From: a virus | Virus record (IMG/VR): IMGVR_UViG_3300040960_000692 | Coordinates: 1-34,353 of that record | DNA: 34,353 nt | Reading direction: 5' to 3' (one strand) | Shown here: piece after piece, positions 12,474 through 14,670 of the stretch | How positions within the stretch are numbered: position 1 is the first letter of the stretch | How the letters are laid out: every line of letters begins with the position of its first letter | The notes under the pieces: model-generated | Database searches by the model: none | What the model was told of the DNA's origin: nothing | The model's input: only the letters and a program-made list of their open reading frames with translations | Made by a program: the position numbers and the translations under genes

Positions 12474-13072
12474 ACAAAAACCTCTTTCATAATAAATTTA
12501 CATTTTGTTAAGTTGAAATTGACAAATGGTTTTAACTTGGCAACCTTAAATGACTTTTCAGGCCATATAATAGTTTCGGCAATTTCTTTATCCCAATTTT
12601 TACAAAACGATAATATCTTATCCAAGATGATGAATGTTTGTACTCCGATTTGTTCAGAAAGAAGTAACCGTAACAATCTCGGGTGTTGACCATTAGATAT
12701 ACGAAAAATATCATCAAAAGAAATCCTATCAGCATCAATGATATTACGCAATAATAAGCAATCATTTCTAAAATTGTATGTAAATGATTGATTATATTTT
12801 TTCCACTTTGTATAGTTTGTTTCTCCATCAGCTCTAACTAAATTTCCTATCCATGTTTTTGAATTATGAAAGAAATTACATACAAAATATTCTAGCATTT
12901 CTTCCTTATTGTATTTAGTTGTAAGTTTATGAAAAAAAAATCTATCATTGCGTTTTAAAAATGTATTAAAAGTTGCATTAACTTTGGCATTGTGCTTGTA
13001 AAAATCATAATTAGAGGAAGTGAAGTGTAGTTTAATTGCCAGGTATAATGTATAAGCTTCATAACTGTTCAT
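12470..13072 (-). CDS. 59: Helicase loader gp59
   Basis: 200 residues (T4: 217). gp59 loads the gp41 helicase onto gp32-coated forks and gates origin-independent replication. The N-terminus MNSYEAYTLYLAIKLHFTS, the block KRNDRFFFHKLTTKY and the C-terminal FNLTKCKFIMKEVFV agree with T4-like gp59. It is encoded between gp33 and gp32 as in T4 and overlaps gp33 by a few bases. Confidence 0.88.
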   Translation of the reverse strand: MNSYEAYTLYLAIKLHFTSSNYDFYKHNAKVNATFNTFLKRNDRFFFHKLTTKYNKEEMLEYFVCNFFHNSKTWIGNLVRADGETNYTKWKKYNQSFTYNFRNDCLLLRNIIDADRISFDDIFRISNGQHPRLLRLLLSEQIGVQTFIILDKILSFCKNWDKEIAETIIWPEKSFKVAKLKPFVNFNLTKCKFIMKEVFV

Positions 13073-13293
13073 ATAGGCAAAACTGCTGTACTTGATTTTT
13101 CAACCAAGTTAAGTTCTTGTGCTTCTTCTTTTATTTTTTCTTTAAGTGATTTATTTACAAGAGGTCCTATAGATGACGGATCTATATCATTATCTTCACA
13201 ATAACTTATAACCGCATCCATATAAGTTATCTTTTTCTTTTTAACAATATCCTCAACTATAAGACTAAACTTTTTACTATTCATTAAATTCAT
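13069..13293 (-). CDS. 33: Late transcription co-activator gp33
   Basis: 74 residues. In T4, gp33 binds the RNA polymerase flap and connects the late sigma gp55 to the sliding clamp. Motifs are ITYMDAVISYCEDNDIDP and VNKSLKEKIKEEAQELN, as in marine T4-like gp33. No Shine-Dalgarno is present; the promoter at 13300-13328 predicts +1 at the ATG. An internal Met4 is an alternative start. Having gp33 on an early-type promoter fits its job of switching on the late boxes seen elsewhere in the window. Confidence 0.85.
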   Translation of the reverse strand: MNLMNSKKFSLIVEDIVKKKKITYMDAVISYCEDNDIDPSSIGPLVNKSLKEKIKEEAQELNLVEKSSTAVLPI

Positions 13294-13299
13294 ACATTC

Positions 13300-13328
13300 A
13301 TTATATCATCTGTGAGTGATTTTGTCAA
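13300..13328 (-). promoter_or_regulatory. 33: Sigma70-like promoter TTGACA-17-TATAAT for gp33
   Basis: TTGACA at 13323-13328, 17 bp, extended -10 TGA-TATAAT with hexamer 13300-13305, then six bases and the gp33 ATG. The -35 box abuts the last pseudoknot strand of the tmRNA gene. Confidence 0.8.
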
Positions 13329-13550
13329 GCCTGTTTCTGTTACTCGGTACAGGCAAACCGTTTAGCAGTATTAAGCTGCCATCGCTAAATTGTTAGCATT
13401 TATAAGATGACTTTACGTTGTCAGCGATTAAACTCCAGTAAGTTTTAACTGTGAATCGATCCTAGTTCCACCCCTTAAATTTCATTGTTTAAATGGTGGA
13501 GTGGGTGGCATTGCAGCCACGTCTTCTCCAGGTATTCTCTTACCTTCAAC
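13329..13550 (-). ncRNA. ssrA: Circularly permuted (two-piece) tmRNA
   Basis: Read on the minus strand, an acceptor piece comes first: a T arm of GTGGC/GCCAC (13516-13520 with 13505-13509), CCACTCC, A, and an encoded CCA at 13494-13496. After a 19-nt spacer comes the coding piece, starting GGGGTGG (13474-13468), which pairs with CCACTCC over seven base pairs including the G3-U70 alanine identity pair. Then follow AGGATCGATT, a tag frame ending GCA GCT TAA (13397-13371) inside a GCAG/CTGC stem, and a perfect H-type pseudoknot: CGGT/ACCG (13357-13360, 13345-13348) with GCCTGT/ACAGGC (13349-13354, 13329-13334). The likely tag is AANNLAMAA, though the resume codon is uncertain. Permuted ssrA is typical of Alphaproteobacteria. 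It would be transcribed with the upstream 111-aa gene. Confidence 0.88.
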
Positions 13551-13552
13551 GT

Positions 13553-13888
13553 TTAATTCATTTGTGGCACTACTAAATCAAATGTATGAAATAAAATACA
13601 TCTTTCAAGTCCACTTGGTATATCTAATACAGCAATTGATTGTGTATTATCTTCATTTACCATATAAGTTATCATATAAACTGGTTCACCATCTTCTACC
13701 ATACCTGTTCTACCTAGTGTTAAGTGATATGGTTTAAATTTATAGTGATCAACATAAGTTTGTATAGCATTTACTGTACCACATAAAGCAGGTACCTGTT
13801 GCATATAAACTTCATTACTAAATTCTTCATGCTCGGCATAAACTACAGTTGAAAATAATATACTTAAAACTATTAAAATCTTTTTCAT
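13553..13888 (-). CDS. Exported protein, unknown function
   Basis: 111 residues with a clear Sec signal (MKKILIVLSILFSTVVYAEHE, cleavage near residue 18). The mature part has two Cys (ALCGTVNAI, ERCILFHTF) that could form a disulfide, and alternating beta-type sequence. AGGGGA precedes the ATG, and a perfect late box lies about 85 nt upstream. It is co-oriented with and directly upstream of the tmRNA. No family recognised. Confidence 0.65.
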   Translation of the reverse strand: MKKILIVLSILFSTVVYAEHEEFSNEVYMQQVPALCGTVNAIQTYVDHYKFKPYHLTLGRTGMVEDGEPVYMITYMVNEDNTQSIAVLDIPSGLERCILFHTFDLVVPQMN

Positions 13889-13965: not shown

Positions 13966-14670
13966 TTAACTATTTATATTATTTCTGTCAAAAAAGTCTT
14001 TAGTGTGTTTATAAAATAACTCCTGATGTTGTTTTATCTTATCTTCACCGTGTATCCATTCTTGTACAAAACCATCTTCACATGCAGCTAAAATTACTGT
14101 TTGTTCTATTTTTTTGTCAGGATAAATTTCTTCAAACATTTTTGCATATGCTGAACATTGTAAAAAATTAGCATAATTATAATCTTCGTCACGTCTTTTT
14201 GTTGAGGTTTTAAAATCAACCACAGATAGTTTACCTTTATATTCAGCAATACAATCAACTTGACCTGCAACACTTATCTCTTTTGAATACAAATATTCTT
14301 CTATACAATGTATGTTATCGAGCCTAGCAAGATAAGGTTTCATAATTCTAAACAGACCTAATGGTGTAACAGCAGTTATACCTATTGACTTGTCATCTTC
14401 ATTTTTTAAATGATTTTCTATTAATGTATGAGTTGCTTTACCTCTATTGATAGCAGATGTAGAAATATAGTTAGCCATTTTTTCACCAACTGCATTTCTC
14501 CATGCCTGTATACCTACTTGTTTTTCGGGTATCTGTCCTAGTATTGAGGTAACGGAAGGCATATTAACGCCATCAATAGTATAATATCTTATGCCATTTT
14601 GACTCTTGCCTTTCACACCTAAACTTTTAGGTAGTTTTTCTTCATTCAGTTTTACATAATTAAACGCCAT
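13966..14670 (-). CDS. PD-(D/E)XK exonuclease (Cas4/MGME1-like)
   Basis: 234 residues. Nuclease signatures: PSVTSILGQIPEK, RGKATHTLIE (H81, E85), AGQVDCIAEYKGKLSVVDFKT with D139, D152 and K154 as metal and catalytic residues, and FLQCSAYAKMF (Q171). This is the RecB-type exonuclease core found in many T4-like marine phages. Likely roles are recombination-linked end processing or host DNA breakdown. It has its own strong promoter (14705-14733) and an AGGAAGG ribosome site. Confidence 0.8.
   Translation of the reverse strand: MAFNYVKLNEEKLPKSLGVKGKSQNGIRYYTIDGVNMPSVTSILGQIPEKQVGIQAWRNAVGEKMANYISTSAINRGKATHTLIENHLKNEDDKSIGITAVTPLGLFRIMKPYLARLDNIHCIEEYLYSKEISVAGQVDCIAEYKGKLSVVDFKTSTKRRDEDYNYANFLQCSAYAKMFEEIYPDKKIEQTVILAACEDGFVQEWIHGEDKIKQHQELFYKHTKDFFDRNNINS
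13971..13978 (-). promoter_or_regulatory. Perfect T4-type late promoter TATAAATA
   Basis: TATAAATA on the minus strand at the 3' end of the exonuclease gene. It is placed to transcribe the exported 111-aa protein and, by read-through, the tmRNA. Confidence 0.55.

What the first reader, a model, noticed from the sequence alone, without database searches (positions are those of the whole stretch)
13329..13550. Phage-encoded circularly permuted tmRNA
Seen: an encoded CCA end lies 19 nt upstream of GGGGTGG. The two acceptor strands pair over seven bp with the G3-U70 Ala identity pair. A tag frame ends GCA GCT TAA in a GCAG/CTGC loop, and a six-bp pseudoknot follows. Known: permuted, two-piece ssrA is characteristic of Alphaproteobacteria and a few other lineages; tmRNAs in phages are rare. 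Inference: the phage may keep ribosomes cycling when host mRNAs are degraded, or tag proteins with AANNLAMAA. The gene sits beside gp33, between an early promoter and a late operon.
Basis: partly seen in the sequence, partly recalled or inferred. Interest (0 to 1): 0.88.

Follow-up and report, generated by a model that had tools for sequence, protein, structure and literature searches.

The report
Marine phage carries two-piece tmRNA gene
This marine T4-like phage, probably one that infects SAR11 bacteria, carries its own copy of the ribosome-rescue RNA (tmRNA) in the rearranged two-piece form of its likely hosts; the finding is real, but such phage genes have been described before, so it is a new member of a known kind.

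Summary
On the minus strand, window 13555 to 13326, lies a complete circularly permuted (two-piece) tmRNA gene: Rfam alpha_tmRNA E=1.2e-15, tmRNA_permuted E=1.6e-12, both above the curated cut-offs; ARAGORN misses it. The window is a 34-kb virus contig, a T4-like pelagimyophage related to Pelagibacter phage Mosig. Seven acceptor pairs with G3-U70, a T-arm, encoded CCA, a tag frame (tag A+ANNLAMAA) and an H-type pseudoknot are all present. Related phages show compensatory changes in the acceptor, T-arm and pseudoknot helices. 72 of 79 phage tags read from the resume codon end in -AA.

It is not novel in kind. Annotated ssrA sits beside gp33 in Mosig, and the Melnitz paper (PMC9004378, 2022) describes two-piece phage tmRNA; HTVC008M has one unannotated. 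In IMG/VR it is common: 61 of 71 testable gp33 loci carry it. On a tree the phage tmRNAs cluster apart from sampled alphaproteobacterial ones, so this looks like an old phage lineage, not recent host capture. No SmpB was found in 20 phage records, so the RNA most likely works with host SmpB, host processing enzymes and host proteases. Function is inferred.

The parts
13326..13555 (-). permuted tmRNA (ssrA) gene; 5' end abuts the stop codon of the upstream ORF, 3' end is the pseudoknot
   Evidence: cmscan RF04321 13371-13555 and RF01849 13326-13612; the alpha model's extra 57 nt at the 5' end fall in the upstream ORF
13505..13520 (-). T-arm of tRNA-like domain, GTGGC-TGCAAT-GCCAC, 6-nt T-loop
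   Evidence: sequence; 5/5 pairs; same loop length in 17 loci incl. diverged variant L101
13494..13504 (-). acceptor 3' strand CCACTCC plus encoded ACCA end
   Evidence: sequence, aligned in both Rfam models
13475..13493 (-). 19-nt intervening segment between the two pieces
   Evidence: sequence; mostly 12-49 nt in other phage loci, 142 nt in Melnitz
13468..13474 (-). acceptor 5' strand GGGGTGG, start of coding piece; G3-U70 Ala identity pair
   Evidence: pairs 1-3 invariant (G-C, G-C, G-U) in 92 of 92 phage representatives
13371..13397 (-). tag reading frame GCT AAC AAT TTA GCG ATG GCA GCT TAA = ANNLAMAA (plus the Ala carried by the RNA)
   Evidence: sequence; resume-first reading of 79 phage tags gives 72 ending in AA
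13365..13379 (-). hairpin GCAG/CTGC around the tag stop codon
   Evidence: sequence
13329..13360 (-). H-type pseudoknot, S1 CGGT/ACCG, S2 GCCTGT/ACAGGC, with AACAGAA loop
   Evidence: sequence; S2 covaries, 53 distinct helices in 85 phage representatives
13300..13328 (-). early-type (sigma70) promoter TTGACA-17-TATAAT for gp33, its -35 box directly abutting the tmRNA 3' end
   Evidence: 12/12 match
13069..13293 (-). gp33-like late-transcription coactivator gene
   Evidence: phrog_254, E 1.2e-23
13553..13888 (-). 111-aa ORF with signal-peptide-like start, directly upstream of the tmRNA; no family match
   Evidence: ORF list, PHROG/Pfam negative, translation
13966..14670 (-). PD-(D/E)XK exonuclease gene upstream
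   Evidence: phrog_298 E 6.6e-55, PF12705
14705..14733 (-). early-type promoter TTGACA-17-TATAAT upstream of the exonuclease-ORF-tmRNA stretch; nearest perfect promoter upstream of the tmRNA
   Evidence: 12/12 match, no terminator-like site found in the region

Best explanation
The locus is a functional, phage-encoded, circularly permuted tmRNA gene of the alphaproteobacterial type. Shown: its sequence, its pairing, and the conservation of both in related phages. Inferred: the transcript is cut by host tRNA-processing enzymes into an acceptor piece (ending in the encoded CCA) and a coding piece (starting GGGG). These stay joined by base pairing, are charged with alanine through the G3-U70 pair, and with host SmpB enter ribosomes stalled on truncated mRNA. 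The ribosome switches to the tag frame, adds AANNLAMAA, terminates and is recycled, and the tagged protein goes to host ClpXP-type proteases. The phage most likely gains ribosome-rescue capacity while infection produces many broken mRNAs; the tag is kept as a degradation signal.
For: Both Rfam models match over their full length, above cut-off. Acceptor, T-arm and pseudoknot helices covary in phages. The Ala identity pair is invariant in 92/92. Resume-first tags end in AA in 72/79, LAA 56 and MAA 8, so the tag's C-terminal degron is under selection. tmRNA is found upstream of gp33 in 61 of 71 testable loci. Phage tmRNAs cluster together (4 label changes against 44 in shuffles). The window's coding piece is 84-97% identical to close phage relatives but at most 71% to any sampled cellular one. 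No SmpB in 20 phage records, three of them complete isolates, while alphaproteobacterial genomes generally carry their own tmRNA (352/385).
Against: No expression or processing data. The T-loop is one nucleotide short, which is unusual for a tRNA-like domain. No promoter of its own was found in the window's clade, so its transcription must be read-through or from an unrecognised promoter. The infected host already has a tmRNA, so the benefit is unproven. Host identity (SAR11) is inferred from related isolates only.
Confidence: 0.85

Rival explanations
1. Counter-defence replacement: the phage tmRNA is a version whose tRNA-like domain has diverged from the host's so that it keeps working when the host tmRNA is cut by a defence nuclease, as has been proposed for phage tRNAs.
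For: In the pelagimyophage clade T-loops are of the UGC(A/G)A type in 25 of 28 rows plus two with the 6-nt form, whereas 156 of 166 sampled cellular tmRNAs have GGC(A/G)GUA. The host already has a tmRNA. Phage tRNAs that evade host tRNA-targeting defences are described in PMC10264068 (title and abstract seen).
Against: No nuclease that cuts SAR11 tmRNA is known to me; about 40% of phage tmRNAs keep the host-type loop; divergence alone does not show escape.
Confidence: 0.1
2. Tag-directed host takeover: the main use is to tag proteins for degradation and recycle amino acids, as PMC9004378 suggested, rather than to free ribosomes.
For: Tag frames and their AA ends are conserved; many other phage tmRNAs have a sigma70-like promoter right upstream, which fits early expression.
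Against: Trans-translation acts on stalled ribosomes and cannot by itself choose host proteins; recycling yield would be small. Tag conservation fits rescue as well, as in bacteria.
Confidence: 0.12
3. Relic or passenger: a tmRNA captured from a host, now only a recombination anchor or a decaying copy.
For: 10 of 71 gp33 loci lack it; acceptor and coding pieces show mosaic identities between relatives; 6-nt T-loop.
Against: Compensatory base-pair changes, invariant G3-U70, intact tag frames in 72/79, and a phage-specific cluster on the tree.
Confidence: 0.04
4. Contamination or misassembly with a host ssrA gene.
For: The contig is metagenomic (IMG/VR record).
Against: Flanked on both sides by T4-like genes; same arrangement in many independent contigs and in isolates Mosig, HTVC008M and Melnitz; far from cellular sequences.
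Confidence: 0.005

Closest known systems
SsrA of Pelagibacter phage Mosig EXVC030M (MT647606.1, annotated tmRNA directly upstream of the late promoter transcription accessory gene)
   Same: Same permuted form, same place beside gp33 and downstream of a PD-(D/E)XK nuclease gene and a small ORF
   Different: Sequence diverged; resume codon is Gly (tag GEDNFALAA), T-loop 7 nt, longer spacer (43 nt)
SsrA of Methylophilales phage Melnitz (MZ577095-8; PMC9004378)
   Same: Permuted phage tmRNA of alphaproteobacterial type in a T4-like marine phage
   Different: Tag ANDNYVPVDYALAA, 142-nt spacer, own TTGACA-17-TATAAATA promoter, glutamine riboswitch just 3' of it; the window has none of these
Unannotated tmRNA of Pelagibacter phage HTVC008M (KC465899.1 about 145103-145414)
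   Same: Permuted, upstream of gp33; A-A tag end, ANFNEYALAA
   Different: Longer spacer (49 nt), 7-nt T-loop, two further small genes before gp33
Alphaproteobacterial two-piece tmRNA (Rfam RF01849; Caulobacter type)
   Same: Gene order, helices, pseudoknot with AACAGAA, Ala identity pair, A-A tag end
   Different: Window tag has 8 codons against a cellular median of 12, a different T-loop class, and no SmpB gene in related phage genomes
One-piece phage tmRNAs (mycobacteriophage Bxz1 group, Bacillus phage G; PMC4131195)
   Same: tmRNA carried by a phage
   Different: Found in unrelated phages; one-piece form from general knowledge, not tested here

Membership tests
permuted (two-piece) tmRNA, alphaproteobacterial type | Covariance-model match above curated cut-off | tested here: met
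   RF01849 64.5 bits (cut-off 50), RF04321 73.6 bits (cut-off 47)
permuted (two-piece) tmRNA, alphaproteobacterial type | Acceptor piece with CCA lies upstream of the coding piece; acceptor strands pair over 7 bp | tested here: met
   sequence; pairing with compensatory changes in phages
permuted (two-piece) tmRNA, alphaproteobacterial type | G3-U70 alanine identity pair | tested here: met
   present; 92/92 phage representatives
permuted (two-piece) tmRNA, alphaproteobacterial type | T-arm present (usual loop 7 nt) | tested here: met
   5-bp arm present and covarying in relatives; loop is 6 nt here against 7 in nearly all relatives, a variation rather than a loss
permuted (two-piece) tmRNA, alphaproteobacterial type | Short tag frame with resume codon and A-A end | tested here: met
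   ANNLAMAA; 72/79 phage tags end AA
permuted (two-piece) tmRNA, alphaproteobacterial type | Pseudoknot 3' of the tag | tested here: met
   S2 6 bp, covaries
permuted (two-piece) tmRNA, alphaproteobacterial type | Processing into two RNAs, alanylation, trans-translation | not testable with these tools
   needs RNA and biochemistry
self-contained tmRNA-SmpB system | SmpB gene in the same genome | tested here: not met
   PF01668 absent from 20 phage records incl. complete HTVC008M, Melnitz, Mosig; the window itself is a fragment and was not among those 20

The most novel reading that the evidence does not exclude
Marine T4-like phages keep an old tmRNA lineage of their own whose tRNA-like domain has a T-loop class different from that of sampled cellular tmRNAs (UGCRA type, 6 nt in this phage), so that it works in place of, and not merely in addition to, a host tmRNA that is inactivated or limiting during infection.
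Probability: 0.12. Interest if true: 0.6.

Novelty: new member of a known kind. Interest (0 to 1): 0.3.

Why it matters
It shows that ribosome rescue is a regular phage function in a widespread marine phage group, not a curiosity: most testable gp33 loci of this clade carry it, with the tag and the charging signal conserved. Because isolates with the same gene exist (Mosig, HTVC008M, Melnitz), the question of why a lytic phage brings its own tmRNA can be tested directly.

Tried and rejected
Late-promoter control: TATAAATA sits mostly 67-72 nt upstream of CTCCACCA in 40 of 123 distinct phage loci, which first looked like a T4-type late promoter; most of these also have TTGACA at 17 nt, so they read as sigma70-like (early or dual) promoters, and I dropped the late-only claim. 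In the window clade, TATAAATA about 478 nt upstream lies in the coding end of the exonuclease gene, so its conservation may be due to coding. Loci L060-L065, which first looked like tmRNA remnants, carry complete genes further upstream, about 500 nt in most of them. A tag search that scored for an AA end was biased and was replaced by a resume-first reading.

Full report
What is there. The window is a 34,353-base virus record whose identified genes, all on the minus strand, are those of a T4-like marine myophage: baseplate and tail tube proteins, DNA end protector, single-strand DNA binding protein, helicase loader, gp33-like late-transcription coactivator, PD-(D/E)XK exonuclease, ribonucleotide reductase, primase, RuvC-like resolvase. 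Its closest named relative over the middle 8 kb is Pelagibacter phage Mosig, followed by HTVC008M and Melnitz. Between a small ORF (13888-13553) and gp33 (13293-13069) on the minus strand lies the feature.

Check of the observation. cmscan of the whole window against Rfam 15 returns two matches over cut-off, both here and both on the minus strand: alpha_tmRNA (13612-13326, 64.5 bits, E 1.2e-15) and tmRNA_permuted (13555-13371, 73.6 bits, E 1.6e-12), each over the full model. A permissive scan adds only one hit far below its family's cut-off. ARAGORN calls nothing, possibly because the T-loop is 6 nt.

Comparative test. From these and three isolates I extracted 168 permuted phage tmRNAs, 92 of them under 90% identical to each other. 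Acceptor pairs 1-3 are G-C, G-C and G-U in 92 of 92 (the search pattern itself fixes CTCC and GGGG in many of these, so the invariance is partly by selection); pairs 5-7, which the pattern leaves free, vary with compensation, and overall 95% of cells are paired against 84% on average and 87% at most in 1000 shuffles. The T-arm, also free in the pattern, varies in the same way. The pseudoknot's second stem averages 6.9 bp against 4.9 (maximum 5.4) when 3' strands are exchanged between loci, with 53 distinct helices. Read from the resume codon without regard to the ending, 72 of 79 tags end in AA, 56 in LAA and 8 in MAA; several of the seven exceptions run off the contig or are misread. The window's tag is ANNLAMAA after the alanine carried by the RNA. 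This is what a working, tag-making tmRNA should look like; a decaying copy or a tRNA-like-domain-only inhibitor of the DS6A kind (PMC4131195) should not.

Where it sits and how often. Of 71 gp33 loci with at least 600 bases of upstream sequence, 61 have a tmRNA within 1.5 kb upstream and 10 do not. In Mosig the tmRNA is annotated next to gp33; in HTVC008M it is present but unannotated; in Melnitz it is annotated. A maximum-likelihood tree of 92 phage and 55 cellular tmRNAs puts 90 phage rows together with only two long-branched Methylobacterium sequences among them (4 label changes against 44 in shuffles); the window falls in a 28-row phage clade with Mosig and HTVC008M (support 96/92). The window's coding piece is 84-97% identical to close phage relatives and at most 71% to any sampled cellular tmRNA. 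The sequences are short, so deep branches are weak, but recent capture from a host is not supported.

Expression. A perfect early-type promoter (TTGACA-17-TATAAT) begins at the base after the pseudoknot and would drive gp33; another lies at 14733-14705, upstream of the exonuclease gene, and no terminator-like site was found in the region. In many other phage lineages, Melnitz included, TTGACA-17-TATAAATA sits at a nearly fixed 67-72 nt upstream of CTCCACCA (40 of 123 distinct loci have the exact TATAAATA within 150 nt, nearly all in one 25-nt bin; expectation about 0.3 per bin from the overall frequency, my arithmetic); sampled cellular loci show no such peak. In the window's clade there is no such promoter, so the tmRNA is most likely read through from upstream. 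This is inference.

How it probably works. Alphaproteobacteria have their own permuted tmRNA (352 of 385 sampled genomes) and, from established knowledge, SmpB. No SmpB was found in 20 phage records, including three complete isolates. So the phage RNA is expected to borrow host processing enzymes, alanyl-tRNA synthetase, SmpB and ClpXP. The likely gain is more ribosome rescue during infection, when broken mRNAs accumulate; tag-driven recycling and counter-defence are less likely alternatives.

What is known. The tmRNA database of 2025 lists 79 unique bacteriophage sequences (PMC11915505). The window is thus a new member of a known kind.

Noticed in passing
window 13505-13520 (-): T-loop of the tmRNA has 6 nt (GTGGC-TGCAAT-GCCAC); 17 loci share this arm length, including one diverged variant (L101). 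Nearly all relatives have 7 nt.
   Followed up: partly
phage representatives and cellular loci: Cellular tmRNA T-loops are GGC(A/G)GUA in 156 of 166, while the pelagimyophage clade has UGC(A/G)A types in 25 of 28, which would allow a U54-A58 pair as in ordinary tRNA.
   Followed up: partly
L002 2742-3053 (KC465899.1 about 145103-145414): HTVC008M carries a permuted tmRNA (alpha_tmRNA 83.8 bits) that is not annotated in its GenBank record.
   Followed up: yes
L003 6067-6019 (-): The Melnitz glutamine riboswitch (E 4e-9) lies a few nt 3' of the tmRNA on the same strand, so it may control the next gene downstream rather than the tmRNA, contrary to the wording of PMC9004378.
   Followed up: partly
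L004 4522-4315 (-): manA RNA motif (64 bits, above cut-off) in Mosig between the rubrerythrin gene and a hypothetical gene; not seen in the window.
   Followed up: no
loci (e.g. L003, L094, L125, L179): TTGACA-17-TATAAATA at a nearly fixed distance upstream of many phage tmRNAs: a sigma70-like promoter whose -10 box is also the T4 late consensus, possibly a dual early/late promoter.
   Followed up: partly
L021 compared with window: Coding piece 97% identical but acceptor piece 81%: mosaic exchange between the two halves of the tmRNA gene.
   Followed up: no
L194, L196: Phage tmRNA whose tag appears to end in ASA rather than AA (AKKSTTFASILPVKVERVSLVQEALAASA), a possible change of the degron.
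   Followed up: no
window 13553-13888 (-): Small ORF with signal-peptide-like start directly before the tmRNA, no PHROG or Pfam match; a similarly placed small ORF precedes the Mosig tmRNA.
   Followed up: no
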